20,817 bases of DNA from a virus, in IMG/VR virus record IMGVR_UViG_3300031368_000248, positions 1 to 20,817 of that record, one strand, 5' to 3'. The notes under the pieces are model-generated. The model made no database searches. It worked only from the letters and a program-made list of their open reading frames with translations, and had not been told where the DNA came from. The position numbers and the translations under genes were made by a program. This document shows positions 244 through 19,984 of this stretch, piece by piece (the stretch's first letter is position 1; every line of letters starts with the position of its first letter).

Positions 244-264
244 CTCAATTTAAGGAGATTTGTG

Positions 265-1955: not shown

Positions 1956-1969
1956 AGGAGAAACATAAA

Positions 1970-2647: not shown

Positions 2648-2659
2648 AGGAGATATAAA

Positions 2660-3337
2660 ATGTCAGCATTAGATTTATCAGATGGCTATACAGCAGCCGA
2701 AGCCCTGCAACAGGTAAGATCACTCCTAAACGAACCCACCGCAAACTACTGGACGGACGATGAACTCAATAAGTGGATTCAAGAAGCCTGCATAGACATC
2801 ACAACCAAGACCCTGTGCTATGAGAAATCAGGTGATATTACGCTCGTTTCAACGCCTGTGCTTACTTATGGCGCTCTGGATGGCGGTGATTCTATTGACG
2901 ATATCCTCAAGATTTACGGGGCGGTATATTATGACAGCACCAATGTCTATAGGGGCTTGATGAAAATTCATCCCCGGATAGTTGGCCGTACACAGGAACG
3001 GACACCAGGGGAACCTTATTACTATTATATCTTTGGCGATGAACTCGGCATTTTCCCTGTAAGCAATGCTGCGGTAGTAACCGCTACCGGCAAGGTTAAG
3101 GTTTTCTACTCCATGGCAGATGAAACTATTACCAATCTGCCCTACTACTATCAACCTCTAGCCATTTATTACGCGGTTGCCATGGCTCGACGCAAGCAGA
3201 AGATGGAAGCGGAAGGTAGACAGTGGCTTACCATGTATATCAACTCGATTCATTTCTACCGTGCGGATCTGTATGAGCGGGGTATTGATTCTAAGGAAAT
3301 GTTTCAGATTCCCGACAGGGCTATAGCAGTAGGATAA
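2660..3337 (+). CDS. Adaptor-like tail-connector protein, paralogue 2
   Basis: The protein has 225 residues, the same length and layout as the preceding gene. Shared blocks include AAEAL.QVR.L..EPTA, W.D.ELN.W..EA..DI.TKTLCYE, YRGL.KIHPR, PYYYY.FG..LG.FP, and DLYER followed by QIPDR. AAGGAG begins in the previous stop codon and ends 7 bases before ATG 2660, so the two are probably translated at similar levels. The paralogues may form successive rings of the tail or alternate in a mixed ring. Both ideas are inference. Confidence 0.75.
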   Translation: MSALDLSDGYTAAEALQQVRSLLNEPTANYWTDDELNKWIQEACIDITTKTLCYEKSGDITLVSTPVLTYGALDGGDSIDDILKIYGAVYYDSTNVYRGLMKIHPRIVGRTQERTPGEPYYYYIFGDELGIFPVSNAAVVTATGKVKVFYSMADETITNLPYYYQPLAIYYAVAMARRKQKMEAEGRQWLTMYINSIHFYRADLYERGIDSKEMFQIPDRAIAVG

Positions 3338-3344
3338 AAATGAA

Positions 3345-4376
3345 ATGGCATGTCTATTCACTACAGCATATTTATTGCAGACAATCCGGGCGATACTCAA
3401 CGAGAAATCGGCTGTACGATGGATTGACGACCAACTCAACAAATGGGTTCAGGAAGCGTCCATAGATATCAGCACGAAAACGGGTTGCTATGAACAAACG
3501 CACATCTTTCGGACATCTGAGAATGCCCTAGAATATGATGAACCAGATGGGTGCGTTAAGGTTCTCGGGTGCATGAAAGGAGGATATGATGATCAAAGCG
3601 AATGGGTTCAACATTTTGATGATGATTGGCAAGAAGGTGATTGTGTATATGCCAGTGCCACATGGGATGGAAGCAAATGGATAATAGTGCTTAATGGTGG
3701 TATCGCTCAAAGCTTAGATGTTAAAACCGGTGCTTCATGGTATAGTGGTTATACTCCCACAAAAATAAGGATTACTTGGAACCATGTATCAAAAATATCC
3801 ACATATTTTTATGCTTGGCCTGATTGGTTTTCAGATTCTGGTTATGAATCATTAGATGAAATAAATTTAGATACATCAGATGGTGATATTACTCGTCTAT
3901 GGATATGTGATTTAGATGGTTTGTTTCATCCGCCACAGACCTATAATATTACCAACATTGAATTTTATGAAGAAAATATACTTTCCGACACCGATTACCG
4001 GGGCCTCAGTCAAATACATCCCCGCCTTGTAGGGCACCTACCGATTTCGATCACCGATGAGCCTTATCACTGGTATCATCATCATAGCAAGATAGGGATT
4101 TATCCCGTTCCCGATGATGAATATATAGTTACCGCCTTTTACTCCAAAGTTACGGAAACCATTACCGACCTTCCATGCTGTATGCGATGGCTTGCGGTGC
4201 CCTATACCCTCGCAATGGCGCGACTATCCGAAGGATGGAAAGATGACTTTGAGATGTTCATGGCTATGTATCTCAATAATTTGATGTTTCACAAACAAGA
4301 CATATATCGGTCAAGGCTTGATATAGATGCACGGGATAAGTTTGAGATACCAATGGGAAAAGTAGCGAATGGCTGA
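3345..4376 (+). CDS. Adaptor-like tail-connector protein, paralogue 3, with large insertion
   Basis: The protein has 343 residues. The ends match the two upstream paralogues: RAILNEKSAVRWIDDQLNKW, DISTKTGCYE, then YRGLSQIHPRLVGHLP, ITDLP, AMARL and EIP near the C-terminus. Residues about 79-213 are an extra segment rich in Trp, Asp and Tyr that the paralogues lack. That segment is clearly AT-rich. I do not recognise its fold, but a beta-sandwich of binding type is plausible. ATG 3345 lies 7 bases after the previous stop with only a weak AGGA ahead, so translation is probably coupled. The C-terminus overlaps the next gene by 8 bases. Confidence 0.75.
   Translation: MACLFTTAYLLQTIRAILNEKSAVRWIDDQLNKWVQEASIDISTKTGCYEQTHIFRTSENALEYDEPDGCVKVLGCMKGGYDDQSEWVQHFDDDWQEGDCVYASATWDGSKWIIVLNGGIAQSLDVKTGASWYSGYTPTKIRITWNHVSKISTYFYAWPDWFSDSGYESLDEINLDTSDGDITRLWICDLDGLFHPPQTYNITNIEFYEENILSDTDYRGLSQIHPRLVGHLPISITDEPYHWYHHHSKIGIYPVPDDEYIVTAFYSKVTETITDLPCCMRWLAVPYTLAMARLSEGWKDDFEMFMAMYLNNLMFHKQDIYRSRLDIDARDKFEIPMGKVANG
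3579..3983 (+). other. AT-rich domain insertion in adaptor paralogue 3
   Basis: About 135 codons interrupt the conserved adaptor sequence between VKVLGCMK and the YRGLSQIHPR block. Sixty-base counts inside give 42, 38, 33 and 27 percent G+C (3661-3900), against 53 percent for 4021-4080 just after. The boundary matches the end of paralogue homology. It looks like a module acquired from a source of different composition. The fold is unknown. Confidence 0.65.
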
Positions 4377-6606
4377 AAATGATGAAATAGGCATTCTTGC
4401 AGAATACATCAGGTCCAAAATCCCTGTTGATATACCTGTGGCTCCCAATATGGAGATATTCACGGAAGAAGTCAGGGCCAAAACTCCCGCTGATATACCT
4501 GTAGCTTCCGATAAACAGATAATCGAACAAGTACCTCCTCAGCCTATACTTATCGAAGAATTGCCCTCGGCTCCCGACATGGAGGTAGTTCAAGAACATC
4601 CGCTCGCCACAATGTCCCTTGATTCGCTTTATGAAGCACCGAATACAGAGCTGAAAAACGTCTTCATCCCCTTTGACGGCAAATGGCTACCGGACAATGA
4701 ACCGATCGAGATAGGGGCGAAAAACTTCAAAACCCTTCAGAATTATAGATATGCCGGAGATGAGATCATACACCTTGAGAGCGTTCTGGGGTACTCCAAG
4801 ATAAACACCACCTCTTTGAGCACCTATAATTACGAGAATATCCGAAACGGCTTTCAACTACGGAGCGAATTCACCAAAAAGACCTACGTGTTGGTACATA
4901 CCGAGCACGACACAGTGGCGAGCAACTATTCTAAGGTTTATCAAAACCAGACGGCAATCCCGAGCCAAGGAGATTTTGTAGCCACCGCCCTTCATACGGA
5001 TTCAGGCTATTCCCTAGAGGGTAGATTCTCCGATGCCCCGGGAGGCCAGGTCTGCTATTGCAACGGCGAGGAGACTTGTATCTGGGCGGGTGAGGAGATG
5101 CGCTGTGCGGGATTTTTCAGTATCTACGTTCCCACGGTCACCGCTACTGATATCGCTTTCGTTGATGGTGGGGCCAGTGCCGATACGATTGTAAGCGATG
5201 CTCAGAACTTCATTCAGGCAGGATTTAAAGCGGGGCAGATAATAACGGTATCGGGAAGTACCAGCAACAATAATTCTTTCCGACTTGTGAGCATTTCTAA
5301 CGATGGGCTCACCCTTACACTTGACACGGGTGTCCTTACCGCTGAAGTGAAAGGGGATACCGTTACCGTCACGGTCCCAACACATTACGATTATCAGAAG
5401 GCAACGGATTATACCGATAGGATTAACAATGCGATAAACTCCGCTGCGGAAGCTGCATACGTTGTCGGAACTACCGGCTATAAATGGCTCGTGTTATCGA
5501 CGAGACCACTTCAAGGCGTTAAATATGCTTTGCGTACAGCCAATGGTACGGGATCAGCCACCACAACTTGCAAGATTTGGGATGGTGATTCTTTCGAGGC
5601 CGTAGATACCCCATCAGACGGAACTGATTCTGGTGGATCGATGAAGCAGAGCGGCACATTCTCTTGGAATTACAGTTCCAGCCCAGTCGCAAAACCTCTC
5701 TATTTTGAGGGCCTTTATCTCTATGCGTATCTCTTTGAGCTTTCCGCAGGAACTGCCTACATCTATCAGGTTACGCTAGATGCACCCTTTCAGAATGCAG
5801 TCGATATATGGGATGGCGTATATCGGCAACCCATATCATTTCAGGTATCAAGTGGATTATCAAAAGGCGGGGGAGAGGTCTCAGGAGATTCTCACGGTTT
5901 AATCGCTGAAGATGCGTATCCATGGATTTATGGCACTGGCCATGGATTGCGATTATGGTCAACGACTGATTTCAATAACATAAAGGTTGGTGCAGTTTTA
6001 ACTATTGTAGATTGGTCTCATACAGTAACAGTAACGCATAAGTTAGATAGTGGCTACCATATAGTGATTGATTCACCTTATACACAGTATACAGCATGGA
6101 GAGCCTTCACCTATGAAAATCCTTATGATCCCGGGACTGCGAAATACAAGAACTATACCCTTGAAGTCAATGAACCCTCCTTTGCGGATTATCCTATTGG
6201 AGCTGTTTTGGATGCTCTGGATACATATAATCATATTATCGTTATGTTTGAAGAGCGTATGTCTGCTATTTGGATTGAGATGATAGCAGGACTGGTAAAT
6301 ACAAATACATCCGTTGCATCTGTGAGTTACTGGAATGGCACTGACTATATTGGTAATCCAATCGTGGCCGATACTACTGGTGCGGGCAAATCCCTCAATG
6401 AATCCGGATTGATTAGTTGGAACCCTCCTGCTGAAACGAGTGAGTTTCGCAAGACCGAATTCGGCATTACGGGCTACGCCTACAAGATTAGCTTTACTGG
6501 TACGCTTTCGGGCACGGCAGGAGGAGCCCACGAGGTTGTGATTGATACCATCAAGGGTATCCCCGCACAAAACACGGTTAAGCCGTTCAAGTTCTCCGGG
6601 CAATAG
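4369..6606 (+). CDS. Tail nozzle/stopper-type protein, N-terminal frame
   Basis: The frame gives 745 residues and ends at TAG 6604-6606. Residues 16-78 are an acidic, proline-rich linker with imperfect P.DIPVA repeats. From residue 118, NFKTLQNYRY, NGFQLRSEF, YVLVHT, GRFSDAP and YCNGEETCIWAG match a family of large podoviral tail proteins with beta-propeller character, as I recall it. Residues 258-336 are the same inserted beta domain as in the adaptor at 1035. Residues about 385-477 and 635-735 look like two copies of one beta module, separated by an insertion at about 495-590. The sequence stops at KPFKFSG, exactly where the family normally continues, and continues in the next frame. The start ATG overlaps the previous gene (ATGGCTGA). 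Confidence 0.75.
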   Translation: MAENDEIGILAEYIRSKIPVDIPVAPNMEIFTEEVRAKTPADIPVASDKQIIEQVPPQPILIEELPSAPDMEVVQEHPLATMSLDSLYEAPNTELKNVFIPFDGKWLPDNEPIEIGAKNFKTLQNYRYAGDEIIHLESVLGYSKINTTSLSTYNYENIRNGFQLRSEFTKKTYVLVHTEHDTVASNYSKVYQNQTAIPSQGDFVATALHTDSGYSLEGRFSDAPGGQVCYCNGEETCIWAGEEMRCAGFFSIYVPTVTATDIAFVDGGASADTIVSDAQNFIQAGFKAGQIITVSGSTSNNNSFRLVSISNDGLTLTLDTGVLTAEVKGDTVTVTVPTHYDYQKATDYTDRINNAINSAAEAAYVVGTTGYKWLVLSTRPLQGVKYALRTANGTGSATTTCKIWDGDSFEAVDTPSDGTDSGGSMKQSGTFSWNYSSSPVAKPLYFEGLYLYAYLFELSAGTAYIYQVTLDAPFQNAVDIWDGVYRQPISFQVSSGLSKGGGEVSGDSHGLIAEDAYPWIYGTGHGLRLWSTTDFNNIKVGAVLTIVDWSHTVTVTHKLDSGYHIVIDSPYTQYTAWRAFTYENPYDPGTAKYKNYTLEVNEPSFADYPIGAVLDALDTYNHIIVMFEERMSAIWIEMIAGLVNTNTSVASVSYWNGTDYIGNPIVADTTGAGKSLNESGLISWNPPAETSEFRKTEFGITGYAYKISFTGTLSGTAGGAHEVVIDTIKGIPAQNTVKPFKFSGQ
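5140..5376 (+). other. Inserted small beta domain (copy B) in tail nozzle/stopper protein
   Basis: These ~79 codons encode DIAFVDGGASADTI, GFKAGQIITVSGS and a LTAEVKGDTVTV ending. They match copy A at 1245-1472 at protein level. The copy sits in an otherwise unrelated protein, which marks it as a mobile structural module. Confidence 0.7.
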
Positions 6607-6613
6607 GCTTATG
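6595..6613 (+). other. Apparent +1 frameshift joining two halves of the tail protein
   Basis: Upstream frame reads TTC TCC GGG CAA TAG. The downstream frame reads GGC AAT AGG CTT ATG. Removing one G from GGG (6598-6600) gives a continuous F-S-G-N-R-L-M-L and a single protein of about 1111 residues, the form I expect for this family. This could be a single-base error in a G run, a real inactivating mutation, or programmed +1 slippage before a slow CAA-TAG context. Confidence 0.7.
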
Positions 6614-7705
6614 CTCTGTGGATATACCCAGGGGAAAGAGGGCAACAGAGTTGACTATTCGGTAAGCGAAGCCGCAGATGTGTTCAACGGTGACGAATCG
6701 AGCATGGACGGCATACAGAGCCTTTACGTAGGAGGCAAGGACGATCTTACCTGTGGAATCGAACTATTTAACCGCTTTGGTTCCAACATTATCAGTTCCT
6801 TCCTACTCTTTAAAAACACCGAAACGTATCTGCTTACCGGCGATGGGCCGGATAATTACAGGCTATATACGATCTCAAGAACCATCGGTTGCCCTGCTCC
6901 CCTGACTATCGCAGTGGCAGAAGTGGTATTTGCCGACGGGATAACCCGCAGGGTAGTGATATGGATGTCCTACGCCGGCCCTATGATGTTCGATGGTGCT
7001 GCAATTATGCCTATTCCCGGGATTAACAAATATTTTGACCCTGCTAAAACTGCCCGATTGGAGACTGCTAGCATCAAAAGATGCCGAGGGTGGTTTGATG
7101 CCACATATAGAGAATATAATCTTGTAATCCCTTCCGCATCTGGAGCCACAAACTGCACTGTATGGGTGTTTTATGATCTTGTAAGAAAACGCTGGTCTGA
7201 GAAAAAACCCGGTGCATCGGAGATACCGCAGGCCGCTTGGCCCGTGATCGATACTGATGGGAAACAATACATCTATGCCGGTATCAATGACGGCAATATG
7301 ATGAGGTTGGAAAACGGAGCTACATGGGCAGATGATTCAGCAACCGCTATGTCTCCTGTGATAGAAACCGGTGATTTCTTTCCATCGGGCGATTTATGGC
7401 ATATCACTACAATCCGACGGGTGAAAACGATTGTTAAGAAAATAACTGAAGCGAGCAAGAATCTTACAACTACACACTATAAGGATACGGAAGCAACAGG
7501 AACCTCATTGACTGCCCATAACCTTGACGCTGGAGATCCTATCAGTAAATTTACGCAAGCTGCGCCTAGTGGTACACCATTGTTCGGGTGGGCTCATCGT
7601 TTTAAATTTGAACTGAGTGCTGGGTTTGTTACGGAAACTCAATTTCACCCAATCGGATTCGGGTATCAATATCTTATCGAGCGGGATGATGAATACGATA
7701 TATAA
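6611..7705 (+). CDS. Tail nozzle/stopper-type protein, C-terminal frame
   Basis: From ATG 6611 the frame encodes 364 residues. Homology-like sequence begins a few codons earlier (NRLMLCGYTQGKEGNRVDYS), in the frame reached by a +1 shift from the previous gene. Motifs NRVDYSVSEAADVFNGDESS, LYVGG.DDLT, ELFNRFGS, LLFKNTETYLLTGDGP, IGCPAPLTI, and later WMSYAGPMMFDG and VFYDLVRKRWSEK fit repeated beta-propeller blades of phage tail stopper/nozzle proteins. There is no good ribosome site before ATG 6611 (only AGG at 6605-6607, 3 bases away). Separate expression would need reinitiation after TAG 6604-6606. Most likely this is the second half of the preceding gene. Confidence 0.7.
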   Translation: MLCGYTQGKEGNRVDYSVSEAADVFNGDESSMDGIQSLYVGGKDDLTCGIELFNRFGSNIISSFLLFKNTETYLLTGDGPDNYRLYTISRTIGCPAPLTIAVAEVVFADGITRRVVIWMSYAGPMMFDGAAIMPIPGINKYFDPAKTARLETASIKRCRGWFDATYREYNLVIPSASGATNCTVWVFYDLVRKRWSEKKPGASEIPQAAWPVIDTDGKQYIYAGINDGNMMRLENGATWADDSATAMSPVIETGDFFPSGDLWHITTIRRVKTIVKKITEASKNLTTTHYKDTEATGTSLTAHNLDAGDPISKFTQAAPSGTPLFGWAHRFKFELSAGFVTETQFHPIGFGYQYLIERDDEYDI

Positions 7706-8663: not shown

Positions 8664-9266
8664 ATGGCAACACAATTAGGTGCGGTTACAGGCCGCAGGA
8701 TACCCTCACAGTATCGGTCCATCATTAATGCCGAGGCTTCACGACTGCCCGATATGTATGCAATGAGAGAAGATAGAAAATACCGTGAGAACTTGTCGGC
8801 ACAACGAGAGAGAGAACTTCAACTGGCGGAAGAAAGCCAAAGGATACAGGAAAGACAAGCCAAGATTGCAACGGGAATAAGTGCTGCTCAGGTAGGGGCT
8901 ACGGGTTATCTGGCACGAAGTATGACGGCTGGGGGAGGAACAGCCACGCCCGCAACTACGGTTCCCATTGGCTCAAGCCCTGACTTTTATGGTGCTCCTG
9001 GAACTCCTGTACCACAAGCAACCACCATGGGTTATCTCGGTACTGCTGGTGCTGGTTATATGGGTGGAAAGATAGGTGGACGTCTTGGCGAAAAATATAT
9101 TCCAGAAGGTTTAGTAAAAGGCAAAGAGTCAAGGGGTAGATGGGGATCAATGGCCGGAGGAGCTGCGGCAGGGGCGGCATATGGCACATGGCTAGCACCA
9201 GGCGTAGGTACTGGTATCGGTGCAGTAATCGGCGGTGTTGCAGGCCTTGTTTCATCCTACTTTTAA
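8664..9266 (+). CDS. Putative ejection protein with glycine-zipper C-terminus
   Basis: The protein has 200 residues. Residues 30-68 are a highly charged coiled-coil helix, then IATGISAAQVGATGY (about 68-82), then a Gly/Ala/Pro-rich linker with many Thr. Residues 161-197 are a glycine zipper (GGAAAGAAYG, GTGIGAVIGGVAGLV) able to span a membrane or self-assemble. This organisation fits internal virion proteins that leave the head and help form a channel in the host envelope. AGGAG at 8651-8655 precedes ATG 8664, one base after the previous stop. The function is inferred from layout and neighbours; no enzymatic motif is visible. Confidence 0.7.
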   Translation: MATQLGAVTGRRIPSQYRSIINAEASRLPDMYAMREDRKYRENLSAQRERELQLAEESQRIQERQAKIATGISAAQVGATGYLARSMTAGGGTATPATTVPIGSSPDFYGAPGTPVPQATTMGYLGTAGAGYMGGKIGGRLGEKYIPEGLVKGKESRGRWGSMAGGAAAGAAYGTWLAPGVGTGIGAVIGGVAGLVSSYF

Positions 9267-9281
9267 TGAGGAGTAATTATC

Positions 9282-10547
9282 ATGGCAGATTATGGTTTAG
9301 TACCCAGAGCATTACGAGGTTTATCTGAAACTGTCTATCGTGGAATGGCGGGTATTGGTGAATCTCGCCTAAAACGTGCAGACATAGGTTTAGAGGAAGC
9401 CCGCACAGGATTTGAGATAAAAAAGGCCGAAGAGGAGCGGGCACACAGAGAAAAAGTATTTGGTGTTGAGCAGGAAAGGTATGCGGAACAAGCCCCAATT
9501 AGAGAGGCAAACATTGAACAGGCCAACCTAACAGGTGAAACAGCACGGAAAGGGCTGGAGAAATTAGGCAGGGAAAAAAGGGCGCTCGAAGAGCCTGTTA
9601 CCCATAGTTGGCTTGCAAAGATTACCGGTGTGAGAGATCCCGAGGATCTTATCAATCGTCTTCCTAATGTCGTGAAAGGCGTAGAGGAAGGATATGGGGC
9701 CAAAGCGGATCAAACAGGCGTATTTATGACGGCCCAAGGGCCTCTCACAAAGCGACAAATTCAGGAGAGTCCCGACCTTTTCAATGCCATCGATCTGCTC
9801 AACCGAGATTACGTATATCAGCTACAATCGGAAATGGTAGATCCCGCTACCGATGAAAAGAGAAGGGCAAGATTGAAAGAGGTGCTGAAGGACAAAGAAC
9901 ATATCTACGCAACACAGTTAGACCACATGCTATCGCTTCAAGCCCATGCCTCTAACATATTGCCAGAAGGACAGCAAAAGGTACTTCAGACTAACATCGA
10001 CCGGATAAAGGATAAGATCAAATACCATAGGGAGCAAAAGGGCAAGGAAAAACTGGAGAGGATTAAACAGACAGGCAAGGGCAAAGAAGCCGAGGTACAG
10101 TTTCAGTATTGGAATAAGGATGGCAAAAAACACACAGTCTATCTACCAAAAGCCACAGTTCCCGCATTTGAGAAAGCGATACTGGATGCGGGAGGGGGTA
10201 CGGAGAAGCCGGAAAAACCAGAGAAAGGGAAAGAACTCAAGGTGAGCGATTTCAATTCCCTTATCGGTCTTATCGATAAATACACCAATAAGGGCGAAAG
10301 AGAGCTCACGCCTGAACAAAAGAAGATCATCAACGATGCAGCCAATACTATCGGTTATGAATACAAAGAGGTAACAGGCAAAATTATGCCTTCTGAAAAA
10401 CGATGGTATTGGACAGATCCCGAAACCAAGAAGCGATGGACACTGGTTAAATCCAGTGGTGAACCGGGCGGTGTGAGGCATAAGATTGAAAAGCCGAAGT
10501 CATATAAGCCCAAATCAAAGAAAGCAGACCCGTTAGGCATTAGATAA
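9282..10547 (+). CDS. Putative internal virion protein, coiled-coil
   Basis: The protein has 421 residues and is very rich in Lys and Glu. Residues about 20-105 predict a long coiled coil (ADIGLEEARTGFEIKKAEEE onward). A central region (THSWLAKITGVRDPEDLINR, MTAQGPLTKRQIQ) and more helix follow. A Lys/Pro-rich stretch (TEKPEKPEKGKE) separates a small C-terminal domain with KRWYWTDPETKKRW. There is no membrane segment or catalytic motif. GAGGAG at 9268-9273 is 8 bases before ATG 9282. Its last stop base is the first base of the giant gene's ATG (TAATG), so the two are translationally coupled. A partner of the giant ejected protein is a reasonable guess. Confidence 0.7.
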   Translation: MADYGLVPRALRGLSETVYRGMAGIGESRLKRADIGLEEARTGFEIKKAEEERAHREKVFGVEQERYAEQAPIREANIEQANLTGETARKGLEKLGREKRALEEPVTHSWLAKITGVRDPEDLINRLPNVVKGVEEGYGAKADQTGVFMTAQGPLTKRQIQESPDLFNAIDLLNRDYVYQLQSEMVDPATDEKRRARLKEVLKDKEHIYATQLDHMLSLQAHASNILPEGQQKVLQTNIDRIKDKIKYHREQKGKEKLERIKQTGKGKEAEVQFQYWNKDGKKHTVYLPKATVPAFEKAILDAGGGTEKPEKPEKGKELKVSDFNSLIGLIDKYTNKGERELTPEQKKIINDAANTIGYEYKEVTGKIMPSEKRWYWTDPETKKRWTLVKSSGEPGGVRHKIEKPKSYKPKSKKADPLGIR

Positions 10548-13500
10548 TGAATTTATCTGAGATACGAAAACAATACCCTGATTATGATGATCTTTCCGAT
10601 GATCAGTTAGCAAGGGGTTTTCACCAGAAGTTCTACACCGATATGCCGTGGAATGATTTCAAGAAGAAGATCGAGTATGTCCCCGGCAGGGTAGTTGAAA
10701 CGAAACCCATAGAGATTGAAAAGCCCTCCTTTGCCAAAGATGTAGCCCTTCAGACCGCGAAGGATGTTGTGGGAGTCATTCAAAAAGTGCAAGCTGGAGT
10801 TACCGAAGCAATAACATTCGGTGTTGTTAAGCCAGAAAAAGGTACTGTTGGAATCCCTTTTACATCAATTCAAAAAAAAGTCAGGGAACCGATAAGTAAA
10901 ATACTCAAGGAACGATATGGCGTTTCTCCTGAGATTGCTGAAAGCCCTTATATTGGCATCCCAGGCCAATTCATGGGAATTATCTTGCCTTGGTCCATAA
11001 CCTCCAGGCTAGTTGGTTATGGCGTGAACTACCTCAGGGCCCTGCGGATCGGCAAGAACTTGATGAAAATCACCGATACCGCAAGAAGAACAGAGGCCGC
11101 AGGAAATATCATAAAGAAAGCAGCGGCCAGGGTAGGCCAGCAAGCCATCACGGGGGGGATTGTCGGTGGCGCTCGTGTGCGGGAAGAAGATGAATCGCTG
11201 TTGCGAAACGTCCTCACTACCGCCGCCCTTGGCGCAGGTCTGCAAATGCTTGGAGAGGGTGTCAATGTTATAGCCACATCCACAGGATTCAGCAGATATG
11301 GAGCATATAGACGCTTAAAGAAAGACTTCACCGACCTACTCTATAAAAACAGGAAAGAACCGCTCAGCAAGGCAGAGGTTGAAGATGTTGCGGATATGGC
11401 GATCAACAAAGCCGCCCAGGATGCGGGACTAGAAAAACTCACAAGGAAAGACCTGAATTCCCTACGGAAAAGTGTGAAGGATATCCGGGGAAAGGTAGAG
11501 AAGGCCCGGGCAGAGAGGGGCGAACCAGTAGCGGAGCCAAGACCGGAAGAAGCCGTAGCCGAAACCCAGACCCAGAAACAGGCCTTTCTAAGGAGAATCG
11601 GCCAGGATGTAGCAGACCCCGCAAACCCCATTACCCCCGCAAATGTCGCTTTCATGGGTGAAAACCCCGCCGTACAAGCCCTTGGCATTACCCAGGAGGA
11701 GCTTAATGCGGTCGCAACTAAGGCAGTAGGGGATACCATAGTAGCGTCTACCACCACAGATGTGTTTGCATCAGGCGATAGGGCAGTAGAGCAATTCCTT
11801 GAAGAGGCCAAAGATGTTGAACCACTTGAGATTATGGAAGAACCTAAAAAGGTTGTCCCCCGGGAACCAACTCCTCTGCAGTTGGTTAAGCGTGAGGCGG
11901 TTGCAGAGGAGAAGGTTGAGCCAAAGCAAGTCCATGATTATAGCAATACACAGGTCAATATCCCGGAAAAGGAAGCCTCTGAAGTCCGCAGTTTTGCTAA
12001 AGAAATACCCGATGCTGAAATCTATGAAGACCCTAAAGATGATTCTTACGGCAGGATCGATGACCCCCATGTAACCGTTCGGTATGGGATGGAAACCCTT
12101 GACCCCAAAGAAATTGAACCTGCTTTTAAAGGGGTTGGACCGATAAAAATCAAGATGGGAAAAGTCTCTATCTTCGAGACTGATAAATATGATGTTGTCA
12201 AGATTGATATTGAAAGTGAAGACCTGGAAAAGGCAAATAAACAAGTGGGAGAAACCGTTGATTTACCGGGAGAAACACACAAGGAATATAAACCACACGC
12301 TACTATTGCCTATGTGAAGAAAGGCGAGGGCAAAAAATATATTGGCAACACTTTCTTTGAAGGTAAAGAGATAACCATTGATGAAATTACATTAATCTCA
12401 AAAGATGGAAAAGTACACCCAATAAAGTTAACTGGAAAAGAGGAAATAATAGAGGAGGCCAAACCTATCGCTACATTCGCACATTATTGGGAAGTACCAG
12501 GAAAAGAACCAATTCCTTTCTATACAGTAAAAGGCGGTAGATATGACGGAAGTACCATCGCCGCAAAGACACTTGAAAAGGAAGGGATTGCAATACCGGA
12601 GACACCGGAGAAGCCTGTTAAGGTCGAAAAACCACCCACAGAAGCGATAGGCGTCCCAGGGATCGAAGAAAAGGCAGAGGCGAAGGGTGAGGTCATACCT
12701 AAAGTAAAAGACGAGATTGATTCACTTATTGAACAATATGAGGCAACTGGCAGGGTTGCCCATAGATACCCAAAGAAAAAGGAAATCTCTCTTAGTGGAA
12801 GAACGATGTCTGAAAAGGTTGCTATCACTAAGATGAAAGAAGTCATCAAAGGAGAAGCACCCAAGGCGAAAGAGACATGGGAGATGACAAAGAAAGAAAT
12901 TGAAGAAGAACACGCTTTTGAAGATATAAATACTTATGCACTTCATACAAACGCAATCCAACAAGCCCTCTCCAAAAACAAACCCGTCCCCCGCCATGTC
13001 CTAGAGGAGTACAAGGGGGAGAAGTGGGCGGATGAAGCATTGAAGAAAAGTCGCCCTAAAAAGATCGGCGATGCTCAAAAGGTAATGGGAATAGATGCCA
13101 TTGTAGCAAAAACTGAACGTATTGATGGCATTGATTATGAACTTTACAATGCAAATGCGCTAAAAGACAAGCGAGGAATAGTAAGAGCTTATGATGTGGA
13201 GTCTGGCAATGTAATCAGCATGAAAGAGTATCCAACGTATGACCAGGCTGAAACAGCGTATAACGATGCCATTAAAGCCCTTAAAAAAAACCCCCCCCCC
13301 ATCAAAAAAGGGGCGGCCAAGGCTATCCCCAAAGCCAAGGCCACTAAGTCCGTCATCCTCAAAGACAAAAAGCAACTTCTCGCTGATATAGATAAAGCGA
13401 TTGAGAAGGCACCAGAATCAGGCACAGAGACAGCAGAAAATATGATGCACTTCGATATTGATGGTGGCGCAGATATTTGGAATACAGAGGCAGCCTTAAA

Positions 13501-16500
13501 GGAATTTAGAAGCAGGGTTGCTAAAACCGCAGAAAGTAAACCCCTCACGATTACCAAAATATCTGAATCCCGTGAATCAGCGCCTACCCTAGAAAAAGAG
13601 GTAGACCAAACTATCAAGATGTATGGTGAGGCAAGTAAAGCCGCAGATATTATTGAGCGTCAAAGCAAGAAGCTGGAACCCACAGAAAGAGAACAAGTAA
13701 AACATCAAAGACTTATTGATGAATTAAGACGTAGGGCTGAAATCACTTCAGTGCCAGAAGACCAAGTATCTGATAGATTTTCCGAAGTCGAAAAGAAAGT
13801 TAAAGCGGAAGCGTATGAACTTGAAAAATCCAAAGCTATGCAGGCCAAAGAAGAACGAAGACAGCAAGCAAAAAAGGCAATTAAAAGGCATTCATCCTAT
13901 AAGGAATTAACTAAACTCATAAAAGAACATGATGAATATGGGAAAATCGACTTCACAAGAACGAAAGGTGAGCTTGAAAATGATCCCCTTAATTATCAAG
14001 GGGCTGAATATACAAAGAGTGGCAAGCGCCTCACAAAACATAGAGGACGGATAAAAGAAATACAGGAAAAGATAGCCAAGGATCTGAATATCAGAAGAGG
14101 ATATTCAGAATATGCTAGAGCATTTGGAGGTGGTAGGCGAAAAACGGAAGGCGATTTTGATCTCTCAACTTATTGGACAGAGGAAGCAAAGAAGGGCGAG
14201 ACAGAGGAGATTGAAGAGAAGATTGAGGATTTTGGAGAAAAAATCGGTGGAGCCCGTAAAGATACAGCAGAGCGTGGATACACCATGACCAGAAAGGCAA
14301 TAAAAGAGGGTGAAGGGATTGAACCATGGCGTAAGAAATTCGTGGCCATGGAAAGGGTTGATGGAACTGGTTGGACTATCGGGAAGGCTGGGGATAAGTT
14401 CGGCATAAGCAGAAGGCCAGGGCAAGTTTTTGCATCAAAAGAAGAGGCTGAGGCAACTATACCGATATTCGCCGTCGCTGAAAATCACAGAGTTTATAAT
14501 GACCGCGAAAACAAAGATGAATGGTCAATATTCAAGCGGGTAGGGAAAAGAAAGCTGTTTAAGGTTGTTGGTAAAACATTTCCTTCCAGAGAGGAAGGAA
14601 TGAAATACATGACCCTACATGCTGAGGAAATACTGAATATCAAAACAGCGTTCGGTGAAGAAATATTACCTATACCGGAAATAGCCGTCAGGAAAGGAGT
14701 AGAGAGAAGAACAAAAGATGCAACACCTGAAATGTTTATGGAGACATTCGTACCAAGAGGGATTGAATTCGGTAACTGGAATAACCAGGAAGAGCGCCAA
14801 CAGGTGTTAAATCACGCCTACGATGGACTCCTTGACCTAGCAGAAGTACTGAATATACCACCAAAGGCTTTAATGCTTGATGGTGATCTTGCCATCGCCT
14901 TTGGTGCAAGAGGACATGGATTGTCAGCGGCAAAGGCTCACTATGAACCGAAATATGGGGTCATCAACTTAACAAAGATGAGAGGTGCTGGAAGCCTTGC
15001 TCATGAGTGGTTTCATGCCTTGGATCATTACTTTGCGCGGCAGGACACGAAGGCCATCGCTGAAAGAGAAAAGGATAAGCATGGAAACTTAGTTTATAAA
15101 ACCAAGGCAGGCCGATATAGTTTCCAGAGCTATGGCCCGAGCTATAAATCGAAGGTACGTCCCAAATTGCAGGAAGCCTATGATATCCTAATGGCAACCA
15201 TGTTTAGGAAGGCAGAGAAATATGTTGATGACATGACTTATGCTGAGAAATTCTTTGGGGCTGCCAGGGATCAACTTGAGAAACAAATCAGTAGCATACG
15301 AAACGATTTAGACCAAGACTTGACGAAAACATATACGTGGAGAAAGAATAAACGAGGGCTTCTCCCTGCATCAAATGAACAACTCACTGAATTTGATACC
15401 CTTACGAAGATTCTGATTGAGGGTGGGAACCTTGAAACTAAGTTTATCGCATCTGAAAAGACGAGAAGGTATGGGGGTGGGCGTTACTCGAATGAAACCT
15501 TAGAGGCAATCAGCAAGATACTGAAAAGCGTTAGGAACAGGAACGGCTTTACTTCTGATCATGCAGGGCTACTTGACCGTTTATCTGCGGCAATGCGAAC
15601 TTACTCTGAACGTCTCAAGCTATTTGATGATGCCAAAAAACGAATTGAAAAGACGAAAAAAATCCCTACATCGTATGCCGTTGAAGCAAAAAAGATGGAT
15701 CAGGCTAGAACAGGTGATTACTGGAGCGAACCGCATGAGATGGCAGCAAGAGCGTTTTCTTCTTACATTGAAGATAAGATCGCGGGACAGGGAAACCAGA
15801 GTGATTTTATAGTTTACCATGCTCACGGCGGGATTTTCCTACCGATGATAGACGGCTATGTAGCAAGGCCATACCCTGAAGGAACAGAGCGAGTTGCTAT
15901 AAACGAGGCATTTGATAAACTTTTTGAGATAATGGAAAGCAAGGAGACCGAGAGAGGCGTTAGCTTGCTCCGTCTTGAACCCGCCCTCGAAGCAGAACTC
16001 CAAGGCTACTCCTTCACCAAACGCCAACAAAAGAACGCGATCCGCACGGCTCCCCTTGTTGTGAACTGGCTCAAACGCGCCGGCGCCGACAAAGAAGTAT
16101 TGGACCGGATCACTGTGGAGCTCAAGCCCTTTATCGACCTAAGGGGTAAGAACATAACCAAAACCCTCCGGGATTGGTCAACTGAAGGTGTGGACATGGG
16201 TAGGATACTCGGAGCTACTACCTTCAGTAAATATCATGCCCTCATTCAGCTTGCCATGAATGGGCAAAACATAGCCGGTTTAGAGCGATCTACCTATCAC
16301 GAGTGGTATCATGTGGCTAAACGCTGGATGTTGCCACAGAGCGATGTAAATGCCCTCGCAAAGCACTTTAAAACTGAAGAGAGTGAAGCGGATTCGTTCG
16401 CCGACTACATGAAGAACTCAAAGACGACTGATAAGGAACCCGGCTTTATCAAACGATTATTCCTCAAGCTCAAGAGGATGATCAATATAATCCGCAACGG

Positions 16501-19500
16501 GTTGAAAGGGATGGGATTCAAAAGGCCAGAGGATATATTCGGAAAGATCAGGACGGGGGCATATAAGCCAAAAGCCAGGGGTGCGGAAACAACGGCAGTT
16601 GGGATGAAGGGGGAAACGAGAGCAACATTGAGTGGACTTGATTTTGAAATGTTGAAGGAAGATAAATCCGTCTTTTGGCATGGGACACCAAGTGGCGATT
16701 TGCGAGGCTCACATTATGGCCTTCATGTTGGAACTTATCAAGCGGCAAAAGAAGCCTTAAATGCCAGAATTGGAATACCAGCAGAAGGTGAATGGGATGG
16801 AACCCGTGAATACGGGAAAACGCTTCTTGCTGGCAAAAAAAGACTTAAAGAATTAGATCCTAAAGAATTTAACCAAACAGGGTTCAATGCTGGAGAAGAT
16901 ATTCCAGAAAAAAATTATTACCCAACACAACGTAAACAAATAGCGAAATACAGTGATCGATCTGAAGTTCTATTCAATTCAAAGCCAAACATCTTCCCCG
17001 TAAGGATTAAGGGGAAAATGACAAATACGCCATACACGCCACACGAAGATTTCAAAGCTAATGCTTTAATGGCTAGACAGATAAAAAAGGGGAAGGCAAA
17101 AAAAGGATATTATTATGAGCAAGTAGGTGAAGATGCTGGTTCAATATCAGCAGTCGTTCCTAATCTTCAGCATCTTGAAATGATTACCGAAGAAACTAAG
17201 CTCTCCTTAGAAAAAGATCTTTCCAAAGAAGAAAAGCTCGCCAATGAGTACGTTGAAAAGGCCCTCGGCAAAGTCCAAGAAACCAAAGTCACGGAACTCG
17301 AGCCCGAGGAGGTATCCCCCGAGGCCTACGAAAAGATCAAGGCACAAGAGGCACAGAAGCCCATCGAAAAGCTCATTGCACAGGCCAAGAATGACGAGCG
17401 CCTTATCTACCATGTGCGGAGCACCCTGAAGAAGGCCATGTCCATAGGCAAGAAAGAGGGGATCGCAAAGCAGAAGGCACATTATCAAGAGGTAGTTGCC
17501 CGGGCAAAGGCACGGAAAGAGCAGATCGCCAAGATCCGGAAGATGATAGATGAGCTCAAAAAGGTAGATACCGAAAAGATGTCACCCCAGGAAGCAGAGC
17601 CCGTGAAGGATCTCCTTGAAGGCATCAACCTAGTGAAGCCGACAAAAAGAACCGTGGCGCGGCTTACCAAGACTAGGGAATATCTTGAAAGCGATTATGA
17701 CGCGGAGCTCCCCGGCTATGTGATGGAAAACCTCAAACGGCTGGACAAGAGTAATATCAGGGATATGTCGGTCGAAGAGATAGCGTCCATCCATACCGCG
17801 GTAATGCACTATATCCACCTCAACAAGCTCAAGAACACGATCAAAGTTCGCAGGGAAGCGAGACGCAAGGCAGAGGTATTACGTGCGTCTGTCGCGGAGA
17901 TGAAACCACCGAAGAAGGTTAAAGATGAAATTGTCTCCTCACAAAAAAGCAAGGTGGGGAGAACCAAAAAGACCGCGAAACTCATCACGGATACGTTCGG
18001 AATCCGGCATGATCACTATGATCTCATCATAGAGTCCCTTGCAGGCCAGAATAGCACCATGGATAAGGTGCTCTATCAGGGTATCAAAGAGGGGATAATT
18101 GAGCAGTTGAAGTACAAGCAGGATACCTACAAGAAATTCTTGAAAGACTTGGGGGATGATTTCTCGGAGAAGCACGGGATCGATGATATAGGCAAGTGGC
18201 TGAACGAGGAAGTTGTTACCGGAAAATTCAGGCTTACCCGGGGTGAGAGAATGGCACTGCTTCGCCATGCCCTCAACGAAGGCAATCTCAGGCATTTACT
18301 TGCGGGGGGATTCGGATTTCGCACCAGTGATACGCCTAACAGGGTTTATAAGATCACAGCCAAGGAACTGAATGAGATATTGCAAAGCCTCACCCCTGCG
18401 GAAAAACACTTTGCAGGGGACCCGGTGAATAAGCTCTTTGAGGAGCAATACAAACGACTCAATGATGTATTTTATGCGAAAAACGGCTACCCGTTACCCA
18501 AGACCACAGACCCATACTATCCCATTGAGGTAATGCCCATAACTCTCGGTACGGATCTTGAGACCGTGGAGGCATTGGAGCAATTCAAGGGCAAATGGAC
18601 CCGCATAGGCTTAGAAAAGGGTATGCTGGAAAAGAGGGTAAAGTCCAGGAAGCCCCTTTACCTTAGCTCGATAGTATTTGATATCAATCGTAGCGTAATG
18701 AAATCCGCTGCCTATGTAGGGCTTGAACTGCCTTTGAGCAATGCCTCAAAGCTACTCTATGATCAATACTTCCGCACCGAACTTGAAAATAGATACGGAA
18801 AGCAGACATGGCGAGAGATAGAAAAGGGTCTGCGGGACATAGCAGGGGATTACCAGAGCTACACTACCGTTGAAGAAATGGCTTTGAAGTTGAAAAATAA
18901 CCTGTCTGTAGCCATGCTCGGAGTAAACCCCTTTGTAATGTTCAAGCAGGTTCTTTCCCTCCCCATATATCTGCCTTATGTAAAAGCAGAGTATATGATC
19001 CAGGGAATGATTGACTTTACAGTACATCCCATAGAAGTAAGCGAGCGACACAAGATATTTTCCCCTGAATACCTTGAAAGGGTAGAAGGGGGGTACAGCA
19101 GGGATGTAGCCGATGTGTTCAAAGGCGCCGCAATGAAGCGACTCTATGCTGGAAGGACAACCGTAAAAGAAAAGTTCATGGGTGGGATACAACTTTTTGA
19201 CCGTACCGCTGTTAGTGCCGGTATGCAAGGGGCTGTTTTGCAGGTGTTGGATGAATTCGCTCAGGGGAAGTTATCAAAGGAAGTTCGTATCGCCCTCGAT
19301 ATGAAGGACAGCGACATAATGAATCTCACCCCTGCACAGAAAATGAAGCAGGCTTATAAGTTTGCTGACTATACCACGGAAAGAACGCAACCAATGTTTT
19401 CCCCGGAGCATCGGTCTTCCCTTTCCCGGGGGGCCACGCTTGAAAAATTAGCTACCATGTTCGGGGCTTTTACCAACCAAGCCCTTAATCTAATGAGGAG

Positions 19501-19984
19501 AACCTACAGGGAAGTAAGACGTACAGGTGATAAAGCGGCTTATGCAAAATGCGCTAAGGCGCTTTTCCTTATTCTCGTGGTCAACACCATGGGCGTTATG
19601 GCGATCGATGAGATACGGAACAGGCTTTACGGGAGAAAAGGGACTTCCATCGCTGGACGCATCCTCAACACATGGACGGGTTATATGTTTTTTGTTCGGG
19701 ATCTCGCAAGTTCGGTGATCAGCAAGATAGAGAAGGGAACCTTTCTCGGCTACGACGTTGAACTTCCCATCCAGAGAGTACCGGAACTGCTTTCAAATGT
19801 CATCGCCAATGGAGTAAAAGTTTTTACCGAAAAATCAGACAAGAAACGAAGTAAGGCTGCAACTAGGTTTGTAGATGATGCTTTCAATCTTATCCTTACC
19901 ATGCAAGGCATTCCCTACGAAACCCCCAAGAAACTTATCGTGAGTGCAACTAAGCAAAAAAAGGAGGCCACGGCAGCTTATTAA
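10547..19984 (+). CDS. Giant phage polyvalent protein, probably virion-ejected, with 2H, two zincin and ADP-ribosyltransferase-like modules
   Basis: The protein has 3145 residues. The N-terminus (IRKQYPDYDDLSDDQLARGF) is a motif I associate with large phage internal proteins. A Gly/Ala-rich hydrophobic stretch lies at 199-243. A 2H phosphoesterase-like domain is at 479-628 (HVT 508-510, HAT 584-586). A short YDGSTIAAKTL element (about 640-690) and a WEMTKKE...VPRHVLEEY element (778-822) recur in polyvalent proteins. A duplicated small domain is at 1264-1365. An LPD1-like zincin is at 1395-1500 (HEWFH 1486-1490; PHEMAARAF 1729-1737). A second zincin is at 1880-2000 (HEWYH 1918-1922; E1947). 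An ADP-ribosyltransferase-like domain is at 2035-2215. Coiled coil fills about 2215-2480. A conserved C-terminal part spans about 2785-3020, with a hydrophobic segment at 3004-3022. Polyvalent proteins of this build are known from phages and plasmids. The exact substrates are unknown. Confidence 0.85.
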   Translation: MNLSEIRKQYPDYDDLSDDQLARGFHQKFYTDMPWNDFKKKIEYVPGRVVETKPIEIEKPSFAKDVALQTAKDVVGVIQKVQAGVTEAITFGVVKPEKGTVGIPFTSIQKKVREPISKILKERYGVSPEIAESPYIGIPGQFMGIILPWSITSRLVGYGVNYLRALRIGKNLMKITDTARRTEAAGNIIKKAAARVGQQAITGGIVGGARVREEDESLLRNVLTTAALGAGLQMLGEGVNVIATSTGFSRYGAYRRLKKDFTDLLYKNRKEPLSKAEVEDVADMAINKAAQDAGLEKLTRKDLNSLRKSVKDIRGKVEKARAERGEPVAEPRPEEAVAETQTQKQAFLRRIGQDVADPANPITPANVAFMGENPAVQALGITQEELNAVATKAVGDTIVASTTTDVFASGDRAVEQFLEEAKDVEPLEIMEEPKKVVPREPTPLQLVKREAVAEEKVEPKQVHDYSNTQVNIPEKEASEVRSFAKEIPDAEIYEDPKDDSYGRIDDPHVTVRYGMETLDPKEIEPAFKGVGPIKIKMGKVSIFETDKYDVVKIDIESEDLEKANKQVGETVDLPGETHKEYKPHATIAYVKKGEGKKYIGNTFFEGKEITIDEITLISKDGKVHPIKLTGKEEIIEEAKPIATFAHYWEVPGKEPIPFYTVKGGRYDGSTIAAKTLEKEGIAIPETPEKPVKVEKPPTEAIGVPGIEEKAEAKGEVIPKVKDEIDSLIEQYEATGRVAHRYPKKKEISLSGRTMSEKVAITKMKEVIKGEAPKAKETWEMTKKEIEEEHAFEDINTYALHTNAIQQALSKNKPVPRHVLEEYKGEKWADEALKKSRPKKIGDAQKVMGIDAIVAKTERIDGIDYELYNANALKDKRGIVRAYDVESGNVISMKEYPTYDQAETAYNDAIKALKKNPPPIKKGAAKAIPKAKATKSVILKDKKQLLADIDKAIEKAPESGTETAENMMHFDIDGGADIWNTEAALKEFRSRVAKTAESKPLTITKISESRESAPTLEKEVDQTIKMYGEASKAADIIERQSKKLEPTEREQVKHQRLIDELRRRAEITSVPEDQVSDRFSEVEKKVKAEAYELEKSKAMQAKEERRQQAKKAIKRHSSYKELTKLIKEHDEYGKIDFTRTKGELENDPLNYQGAEYTKSGKRLTKHRGRIKEIQEKIAKDLNIRRGYSEYARAFGGGRRKTEGDFDLSTYWTEEAKKGETEEIEEKIEDFGEKIGGARKDTAERGYTMTRKAIKEGEGIEPWRKKFVAMERVDGTGWTIGKAGDKFGISRRPGQVFASKEEAEATIPIFAVAENHRVYNDRENKDEWSIFKRVGKRKLFKVVGKTFPSREEGMKYMTLHAEEILNIKTAFGEEILPIPEIAVRKGVERRTKDATPEMFMETFVPRGIEFGNWNNQEERQQVLNHAYDGLLDLAEVLNIPPKALMLDGDLAIAFGARGHGLSAAKAHYEPKYGVINLTKMRGAGSLAHEWFHALDHYFARQDTKAIAEREKDKHGNLVYKTKAGRYSFQSYGPSYKSKVRPKLQEAYDILMATMFRKAEKYVDDMTYAEKFFGAARDQLEKQISSIRNDLDQDLTKTYTWRKNKRGLLPASNEQLTEFDTLTKILIEGGNLETKFIASEKTRRYGGGRYSNETLEAISKILKSVRNRNGFTSDHAGLLDRLSAAMRTYSERLKLFDDAKKRIEKTKKIPTSYAVEAKKMDQARTGDYWSEPHEMAARAFSSYIEDKIAGQGNQSDFIVYHAHGGIFLPMIDGYVARPYPEGTERVAINEAFDKLFEIMESKETERGVSLLRLEPALEAELQGYSFTKRQQKNAIRTAPLVVNWLKRAGADKEVLDRITVELKPFIDLRGKNITKTLRDWSTEGVDMGRILGATTFSKYHALIQLAMNGQNIAGLERSTYHEWYHVAKRWMLPQSDVNALAKHFKTEESEADSFADYMKNSKTTDKEPGFIKRLFLKLKRMINIIRNGLKGMGFKRPEDIFGKIRTGAYKPKARGAETTAVGMKGETRATLSGLDFEMLKEDKSVFWHGTPSGDLRGSHYGLHVGTYQAAKEALNARIGIPAEGEWDGTREYGKTLLAGKKRLKELDPKEFNQTGFNAGEDIPEKNYYPTQRKQIAKYSDRSEVLFNSKPNIFPVRIKGKMTNTPYTPHEDFKANALMARQIKKGKAKKGYYYEQVGEDAGSISAVVPNLQHLEMITEETKLSLEKDLSKEEKLANEYVEKALGKVQETKVTELEPEEVSPEAYEKIKAQEAQKPIEKLIAQAKNDERLIYHVRSTLKKAMSIGKKEGIAKQKAHYQEVVARAKARKEQIAKIRKMIDELKKVDTEKMSPQEAEPVKDLLEGINLVKPTKRTVARLTKTREYLESDYDAELPGYVMENLKRLDKSNIRDMSVEEIASIHTAVMHYIHLNKLKNTIKVRREARRKAEVLRASVAEMKPPKKVKDEIVSSQKSKVGRTKKTAKLITDTFGIRHDHYDLIIESLAGQNSTMDKVLYQGIKEGIIEQLKYKQDTYKKFLKDLGDDFSEKHGIDDIGKWLNEEVVTGKFRLTRGERMALLRHALNEGNLRHLLAGGFGFRTSDTPNRVYKITAKELNEILQSLTPAEKHFAGDPVNKLFEEQYKRLNDVFYAKNGYPLPKTTDPYYPIEVMPITLGTDLETVEALEQFKGKWTRIGLEKGMLEKRVKSRKPLYLSSIVFDINRSVMKSAAYVGLELPLSNASKLLYDQYFRTELENRYGKQTWREIEKGLRDIAGDYQSYTTVEEMALKLKNNLSVAMLGVNPFVMFKQVLSLPIYLPYVKAEYMIQGMIDFTVHPIEVSERHKIFSPEYLERVEGGYSRDVADVFKGAAMKRLYAGRTTVKEKFMGGIQLFDRTAVSAGMQGAVLQVLDEFAQGKLSKEVRIALDMKDSDIMNLTPAQKMKQAYKFADYTTERTQPMFSPEHRSSLSRGATLEKLATMFGAFTNQALNLMRRTYREVRRTGDKAAYAKCAKALFLILVVNTMGVMAIDEIRNRLYGRKGTSIAGRILNTWTGYMFFVRDLASSVISKIEKGTFLGYDVELPIQRVPELLSNVIANGVKVFTEKSDKKRSKAATRFVDDAFNLILTMQGIPYETPKKLIVSATKQKKEATAAY
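11981..12430 (+). other. 2H phosphoesterase-like domain inside the giant protein
   Basis: Two HxT motifs, DPHVTVRYG and KPHATIAYV, lie 76 residues apart (H508/T510 and H584/T586), each on a beta-strand-like segment, as in 2H phosphoesterases. The stretch is AT-rich (35 percent G+C in 12301-12360), against 58 percent in 11521-11580. The family cleaves or makes 2',3'-cyclic phosphates in RNA and nucleotides. Phage T4 Acb1, which destroys CBASS cyclic nucleotide signals, belongs to it. Confidence 0.75.
13283..13300 (+). repeat. A8-C10 homopolymer pair inside the giant gene
   Basis: Eight A followed by ten C encode Leu-Lys-Lys-Asn-Pro-Pro-Pro in frame. The frame continues intact here. Such runs are prone to replication and polymerase slippage and to sequencing miscalls. 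Confidence 0.9.
14729..15745 (+). other. LPD1-like zincin metallopeptidase module
   Basis: Conserved pieces are RGIEFGNWNNQEERQQVLNH, YDGLLDLAEVLNIPPKAL, LAIAFGARGHG, YGVINLTKMRGAGSLAHEW, then FHALDHYF. They match the large polyvalent protein-associated metallopeptidase-like family I know as LPD1. HEWFH (1486-1490) supplies two zinc ligands and the catalytic Glu. A possible third ligand is in YWSEPHEMAARAF (about 1725-1737). Proteolysis is likely but unproven. Confidence 0.8.
16184..16560 (+). other. Second zincin-like metallopeptidase module
   Basis: STYHEWYHVAKRW carries HEWYH at 1918-1922, with EADSFADYM (E1947) 25 residues after the second His, the usual place for a third ligand in Glu-zincins. 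The following helical tail (GLKGMGFKRPEDIFGKIRTG) is common after such modules in phage polyvalent proteins. The spacing supports an active site different from the first zincin. Confidence 0.75.
16649..17190 (+). other. ADP-ribosyltransferase-like domain (polyvalent type)
   Basis: FWHGTPSGDLRGSHYGLHVG (H2045) resembles the H-G-T...G-x-H-F-G-T start of ART-PolyVal domains, and YYYEQVGEDAGSISAVVPNL (E2195) resembles the usual end, with the catalytic-type Glu near Glu-Asp. The stretch is AT-rich (28 percent G+C in 16861-16920) between flanks near 57 percent. NAD-dependent transfer of ADP-ribose to a host target is likely, but the target is unknown. Confidence 0.65.

What the first reader, a model, noticed from the sequence alone, without database searches (positions are those of the whole stretch)
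10547..19984. Single 3145-residue protein combining 2H, two zincins and an ADP-ribosyltransferase-like domain
The ORF is about 9.4 kb and has no internal stop. The enzyme modules sit between phage-type terminal regions, next to putative ejection genes. Polyvalent proteins with peptidase and ART modules are known in phages and conjugative elements. This exact set and order may be new. The layout suggests a multi-tool effector stored in the virion.
Basis: partly seen in the sequence, partly recalled or inferred. Interest (0 to 1): 0.72.

Follow-up and report, generated by a model that had tools for sequence, protein, structure and literature searches.

The report
Giant multi-enzyme phage ejection protein
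A short-tailed phage encodes one 3145-residue protein whose two ends look like those of proteins that phages eject into bacteria with their DNA, and whose middle carries an RNA/nucleotide-cutting enzyme, two metal proteases and an ADP-ribosyltransferase-like domain, making it a new member of the known class of phage "polyvalent" injected proteins.

Summary
In detail: window 10547-19984 is one open frame of 3145 aa with a 2H phosphoesterase, two HEXXH zincins and an ART-like domain. It is a polyvalent protein, a class described in 2017 (PMC5512222), so the kind is known and the combination is a new mosaic. What I add: (1) residues 1-48 are a module without a Pfam model, found at the extreme N-terminus of 84 of 84 ORFs (about 340 to 3900 aa where complete) in podovirus-like contigs, including proteins matching 'DNA ejection protein' profiles; (2) the C-terminal 820 residues are homologous to Bordetella phage BPP-1 Bbp10 (E 2e-17), the giant third member of its ejection-protein cassette; (3) zincin 1 and LPD1 look like two halves of one gluzincin (best matches lethal factor and PPEP-2), with an invariant LPD1 glutamate as probable third zinc ligand; (4) the ART-like domain belongs to a family of at least 35 sequences that no Pfam, PHROG or NCBIfam model covers; its model (pLDDT 89) matches almost only ARTs. 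Module pairs recur elsewhere, and L212 has 2H-PRTase-zincin2-ART-PolyVal next to the same tail gene. Most likely an ejected, self-processed multi-effector. Packaging in the virion and all activities are inferred.

The parts
10547..19984 (+). giant polyvalent/ejection protein, 3145 aa
10547..10690 (+). N-terminal module, residues 1-48; shared by podovirus ejection and polyvalent proteins
12026..12409 (+). 2H phosphoesterase domain, residues 494-621, catalytic motifs HVT (508) and HAT (584)
14189..14581 (+). conserved region (residues 1215-1345) found just before zincin 1 in nearly all relatives
14564..15196 (+). zincin 1 core, residues 1340-1550, HEWFHALD at 1486-1493, conserved H1465
15197..15694 (+). 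helical insert between the two halves of zincin 1, residues 1551-1716
15695..15940 (+). LPD1 (PF18796), residues 1717-1798; invariant E1731, probable third zinc ligand of zincin 1
16214..16576 (+). zincin 2, residues 1890-2010, HEWYH 1918-1922 and conserved E1945
16664..17191 (+). ART-like domain, residues 2040-2215, family without a database model; conserved H2045, H2060, W2083-G2090, E2195, D2196, S2199, S2201
17495..19960 (+). C-terminal Bbp10-type region, residues 2317-3138 (phrog_28077), with one strong hydrophobic helix at 2997-3024
8664..9266 (+). 200 aa Gly-zipper protein, candidate small ejection protein
   Evidence: PF13441 E 4e-4, below cut-off; gene position
9282..10547 (+). 421 aa protein, candidate middle ejection protein; its TAA overlaps the giant's ATG (TAATG)
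   Evidence: gene position compared with BPP-1, L086, L110, L212
4369..7705 (+). tail protein, one 1094 aa ORF in near-identical L082, split in the window by an 8-base difference

Best explanation
The protein is a podovirus ejection protein of the gp16/Bbp10 position that has been expanded into a polyvalent effector. It is made with the late structural genes and packaged in the head with the smaller 200 aa and 421 aa proteins. It leaves the virion before or with the DNA. Its N-terminal module and its Bbp10-type C-terminus, with a hydrophobic helix, do the packaging, ejection and membrane work. Inside the cell, zincin 1 (a gluzincin made of the HEXXH half plus LPD1) and possibly zincin 2 cut the chain, freeing the 2H domain to destroy an RNA end or a 2'-5'/cyclic nucleotide signal and the ART domain to ADP-ribosylate a host target. 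Shown by computation: frame, module identities, homology of both ends, gene order, mosaicism. Inferred: packaging, ejection, self-cleavage, catalysis and targets.
For: Domain content and size match the polyvalent class (PMC5512222). The N-module lies at the N-terminus of 84/84 ORFs, and some of these (L129, L105) match 'DNA ejection protein' and 'internal virion protein' profiles. In P22-like phages the N-module giant sits behind the head-completion and stabilization genes. The C-terminus is homologous to Bbp10 (phrog_28077 E 5e-63; hhalign prob 98.9, E 2.2e-17 over 627 columns); in BPP-1 it follows an 'internal virion protein' and a transglycosylase. Gene order tail protein, 200-500 aa protein(s), giant is the same in L086, L110 and L212. 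Zincin 1 plus LPD1: invariant H1465, H1486, E1487, H1490, D1493 and E1731 in 38 sequences; VIA Z 7.9 lethal factor, 7.2 PPEP-2, also neprilysin, vibriolysin, thermolysin. ART: the 50 listed VIA rows are nearly all ART-fold enzymes; the viral library returns ART-PolyVal proteins.
Against: No virion proteomics. Structural Z-scores are modest (ART 5.3, zincin 7.9), and Foldseek against the PDB gave no E below 0.1. The ART acid residue is not settled (H-H instead of H-Y). Packaged but unprocessed giants exist (N4 vRNAP, cited in PMC5512222), so cleavage is not a given. Residues 650-1215 and 61-450 have no recognised relatives except in near-identical L082. The idea that 2H degrades a signal rests on analogy; the window's 2H falls below the Acb1 cut-off.
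Confidence: 0.72

Rival explanations
1. It is mainly a structural ejection protein: the ends build the conduit and the enzyme domains are cargo that stays in one chain and acts without cleavage (like N4 virion RNA polymerase).
For: Both ends match ejection-type proteins; PMC5512222 notes that N4 vRNAP is packaged unprocessed although it has a metallopeptidase domain.
Against: Two zincins with intact HEXXH and third-ligand candidates conserved across 38 and 4 sequences suggest that peptidase activity is kept.
Confidence: 0.25
2. The zincins attack host proteins rather than the protein itself, so the polypeptide is a set of host-directed effectors.
For: The best structural matches of zincin 1 (lethal factor, PPEP-2) cut other proteins. 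PMC5512222 lists this option.
Against: A fold match does not give the substrate; long low-conservation linkers between modules fit self-processing as well.
Confidence: 0.25
3. It is a late-expressed intracellular protein that is never packaged.
For: No proteomics is available; packaging is inferred from homology and position.
Against: N-module shared with ejection-protein matches, C-terminus shared with Bbp10, ejection-cassette gene order.
Confidence: 0.08
4. The modules are chance motifs in a long helical structural protein.
For: ART and zincin 2 get no database family hit.
Against: Conserved families with invariant catalytic residues, significance of 2H and LPD1, consistent fold matches.
Confidence: 0.02

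Closest known systems
Polyvalent proteins (Iyer et al. 2017, PMC5512222)
   Same: giant phage protein next to late virion genes, mixing zincin metallopeptidase, 2H, ART and LPD domains
   Different: this exact set was not found elsewhere; the ART belongs to an unmodelled family, and the ends are Bbp10-type and N-module-type rather than LPD38 or N4-RNAP
Bordetella phage BPP-1 Bbp10 (2052 aa)
   Same: homologous C-terminal region of about 630-820 residues, HEXXH in the middle, third gene of the ejection cassette
   Different: Bbp10's own HEXXH region (CLCA_X, PMC3650047) is not alignable to zincin 1; no N-module seen at its N-terminus
L212 (IMGVR_UViG_3300014656_000003), 3187 aa protein
   Same: 2H, zincin 2, ART in that order, after a homologous tail protein
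   Different: phosphoribosyltransferase in place of zincin 1-LPD1, ART-PolyVal instead of the window's ART family, different N-terminus
Giants of Vibrio phage 1.183.O, Thalassomonas phage BA3 and Ruegeria phage 45A6
   Same: same N-module, same position behind tail/ejection genes, 2600-3900 aa
   Different: C-terminus is LPD38; of the enzyme modules only a degenerate zincin 2 in 45A6 was detected
Giant proteins of Stx-converting phages (phrog_616)
   Same: zincin 1 region about 40% identical
   Different: other modules differ; annotated as LPD5 or hypothetical

Membership tests
Phage polyvalent proteins | two or more unrelated enzymatic or LPD domains in one polypeptide | tested here: met
Phage polyvalent proteins | encoded among late virion genes | tested here: met
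   adaptors, tail protein, ejection-type genes directly upstream
Phage polyvalent proteins | packaged and injected | not testable with these tools
   only indirect: homologous ends
Phage-type zincin MPTase (PMC5512222) | HEXXH, Asp three residues after it, conserved His at end of strand 2, Glu in a later helix | tested here: met
   H1486-E1487-H1490, D1493, H1465, E1731 invariant in 38 sequences; helix order; zinc coordination itself not tested
Gluzincin fold | structural match over both the HEXXH helix and the Glu helix | tested here: met
   PPEP-2 Z 7.2, rmsd 3.6, 150 residues, model 59-454; lethal factor Z 7.9; Z under 8, so read with the conserved residues
Zincin (zincin 2) | HEXXH plus downstream Glu conserved in relatives | tested here: met
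   H, E, H and E1945 invariant in 4 sequences; its part of the model has low confidence, so fold not confirmed
2H phosphoesterase superfamily | PF13563 above cut-off, two H-x-[ST] motifs | tested here: met
Acb1 anti-CBASS protein | PF23474 above curated cut-off | tested here: not met
   19.5 bits against 27; a relative, L041, does pass (29.3)
ART superfamily | ART fold with conserved active-site residues | tested here: inconclusive
   fold matches nearly all ARTs (Z up to 5.3) and H2045/H2060 conserved; catalytic acid not assigned, NAD use not tested
ART-PolyVal (PF18760) | match to the Pfam model | tested here: not met
   no match in the window at E up to 10 while several relatives match; profile comparison prob 0.3
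Bbp10 / phrog_28077 | homologous C-terminal region | tested here: met
LPD38-ended giants | PF18857 at the C-terminus | tested here: not met
   no match in the window; 11 of the 12 other N-module giants tested have it

The most novel reading that the evidence does not exclude
The 48-residue N-terminal module is a transferable virion-packaging/ejection tag that phages attach to anything from a 500-residue ejection protein to a 3900-residue polyvalent effector. In addition, LPD1 is not a separate domain but the third-ligand half of a lethal factor/PPEP-like peptidase that cuts the ejected chain, and the ART-like domain founds a new H-H type family of injected ADP-ribosyltransferases.
Probability: 0.3. 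Interest if true: 0.72.

Novelty: new member of a known kind. Interest (0 to 1): 0.48.

Why it matters
How polyvalent proteins enter virions is open. A short N-terminal module shared by ejection-type proteins and giants in at least 84 ORFs makes this directly testable by fusion and deletion. The zincin 1-LPD1 reading would turn a domain of unknown function into a peptidase half present in about 80 loci here, and the ART-like family (35 members, some in short ORFs of about 200 aa) is a new target for biochemistry. The protein itself is a mosaic of known parts.

Tried and rejected
Chance-motif reading rejected (conservation, shuffles). ART-PolyVal membership: no sequence support. C-terminus as divergent LPD38: no support from hhalign or HMM. 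Zincin 1 as the CLCA_X zincin of Bbp10: no profile match. tblastn for the ART and C-terminal parts in phages and plasmids, and peptide-pattern scans of viral and genome contigs for these parts, found nothing; a degenerate DNA pattern for GTREYG.TL then found the ART family, and a tblastn with a relaxed limit found Bbp10. Sequence searches against solved structures gave no significant hit for the whole protein, the N-module, the ART or zincin 1. Papers on the BPP-1 genome (doi 10.1128/JB.186.5.1503-1517.2004) and the cyanophage A4 pre-ejectosome (PMC12002296) are not held, so BPP-1 virion proteomics and the identity of A4 chain 9k3a_B could not be read. Foldseek against the PDB gave only weak hits for both models; its top ART hit is the A4 pre-ejectosome chain (E 0.22, not significant). 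Combined alignment A2 misaligned the zincin 2 rows and was not used for folding. Neighbours of the short ART ORFs gave no informative Pfam context.

Full report
Observation. The frame 10547-19984 on the + strand is open for 3145 codons. Its ATG overlaps the stop of the preceding 421 aa gene as TAATG. The window is a 20,817-base virus record, so probably a fragment. The direct searches identify LPD1 (residues 1717-1798, E 2e-18) and a 2H domain (494-621, E 1.2e-7) above curated cut-offs, and PHROG matches to giant phage proteins of unknown function. Two HEXXH motifs and two H-x-T motifs are present; two HEXXH in a shuffled version of the protein occur in 0.2%.

Zincin 1 and LPD1. About 80 viral loci carry a module of ~130 residues, zincin 1 and LPD1 in this order. 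In 38 aligned sequences H1465, H1486, E1487, H1490, D1493 and E1731 are invariant. The first five fit the phage-type metallopeptidase described by Iyer et al. (HEXXH, Asp three residues on, His at the end of strand 2). The invariant glutamate in a later helix, expected as the third zinc ligand, lies in LPD1. The AlphaFold model (mean pLDDT 79.5; most blocks of the zincin 1 core and LPD1 well above that) matches lethal factor (Z 7.9), PPEP-2 (Z 7.2, rmsd 3.6, 150 residues, model range 59-454), neprilysin, vibriolysin and thermolysin. These ranges span the HEXXH helix and the LPD1 helix. Foldseek alone gave no significant hit.

Zincin 2. Relatives occur in L006, L086, L210, L212, L213 and others. 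HEXXH and a glutamate 23 residues after it (E1945) are invariant in four aligned sequences. Its part of the model is of low confidence, so the fold is not confirmed.

ART-like domain. No family library covers it. A degenerate pattern for GTREYG.TL found 35 relatives in viral contigs and a few genome contigs, some in ORFs of about 200 aa, others inside giants. The alignment shows an almost invariant H2045 (HG[TS]), H2060, most of the block W2083-G2090, E2195, D2196, S2199 and S2201. The model has pLDDT 89. The 50 VIA rows shown are nearly all ART-fold enzymes (tankyrase Z 5.3, PARPs, RES/MbcT/ParT toxins, diphtheria-type enzymes, Tpt1/KptA, Arr), and the viral library returns ART-PolyVal proteins. 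Z-scores are low, so the uniformity of the list and the conserved histidines carry the argument. The domain is not ART-PolyVal by sequence.

Ends. Residues 1-48 are shared with giants of P22-like and other podoviruses. A scan of viral contigs found 229 relatives, of which 80 were kept; in the 84 ORFs examined the module is always at the extreme N-terminus, in ORFs of about 340 to 3908 aa where complete. Of ten shorter ones scanned, L129 matches a 'DNA ejection protein' profile (3e-11) and L105 an 'internal virion protein' profile (1.5e-5). 11 of the 12 other N-module giants tested contain LPD38; the window does not. Its residues 2317-3138 are instead homologous to Bbp10 of Bordetella phage BPP-1 and relatives (phrog_28077 E 5e-63; tblastn 22% E 7e-5; hhalign E 2.2e-17). 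Bbp10 follows an 'internal virion protein' and a transglycosylase gene in the structural cassette. A hydrophobic helix lies at 2997-3024.

Context and mosaicism. Upstream are SU10-type adaptors, a tail protein, a Gly-zipper protein and a 421 aa protein. L086, L110 and L212 keep adaptor and/or tail genes, 200-500 aa proteins and then a giant. Module combinations found: 2H/zincin 2 (L086, L212), 2H/zincin 1-LPD1 (L039, L041), zincin 1-LPD1/zincin 2 (L006, L213), N/zincin 2 (L091), ART/zincin 2 (L210), 2H/ART in both orders (L197, L199). L212 reads 2H-PRTase-zincin 2-ART-PolyVal. No other protein in the retrieved set has all modules, but the sampling was by similarity and not exhaustive.

Interpretation. 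The class is the polyvalent proteins of Iyer et al. 2017. I place the protein at the gp16/Bbp10 position of the ejection cassette, with enzyme cargo in the middle. Ejection and self-processing are inferred. The 2H domain may degrade an RNA end or a cyclic or 2'-5' nucleotide signal, and the ART may modify a host target; both follow the proposals for the class. The virion reading is the least direct step and would be settled by mass spectrometry.

Noticed in passing
window 4369-7705, position 6600: The window lacks 8 bases relative to 99%-identical L082, which splits a 1094 aa tail protein into 745 and 387 aa frames; deletion between short repeats or assembly error.
   Followed up: yes
window 1035-4376: Four consecutive genes match the SU10 adaptor family; 1970-2647 and 2660-3337 are clear paralogues.
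   Followed up: partly
window 1035-1955 and 4369-6606: A module (IAFVDGGASADTI...) is shared between the first adaptor gene and the tail protein.
   Followed up: no
window 262-612 and 653-994: Two tandem, very similar small genes of 116 and 113 aa (MITGxxIxMMLxxxETYFVAAPY).
   Followed up: no
window 13283-13314: Homopolymer stretch A7-C10-ATC-A6-G4 inside the giant frame, prone to slippage or sequencing error; L082 ends before it, so no check was possible.
   Followed up: no
window 10547-19984: The 3145 aa protein has about one cysteine in all (0.0% by composition).
   Followed up: no
L083, L084, L087, L006 N-termini: Other giants start with different short repeated acidic motifs (YLSDEEVF, TLDDIL, MSDEEL), possibly alternative N-terminal tags.
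   Followed up: no
L210: ART and zincin 2 occur together in an ORF on a contig binned as a Diapherotrites archaeon; may be a prophage or a binning error.
   Followed up: no
L187, L176, L203: ORFs of about 200 aa with the ART-like domain lie directly after 630-820 aa ORFs; the neighbours gave no informative Pfam match.
   Followed up: partly
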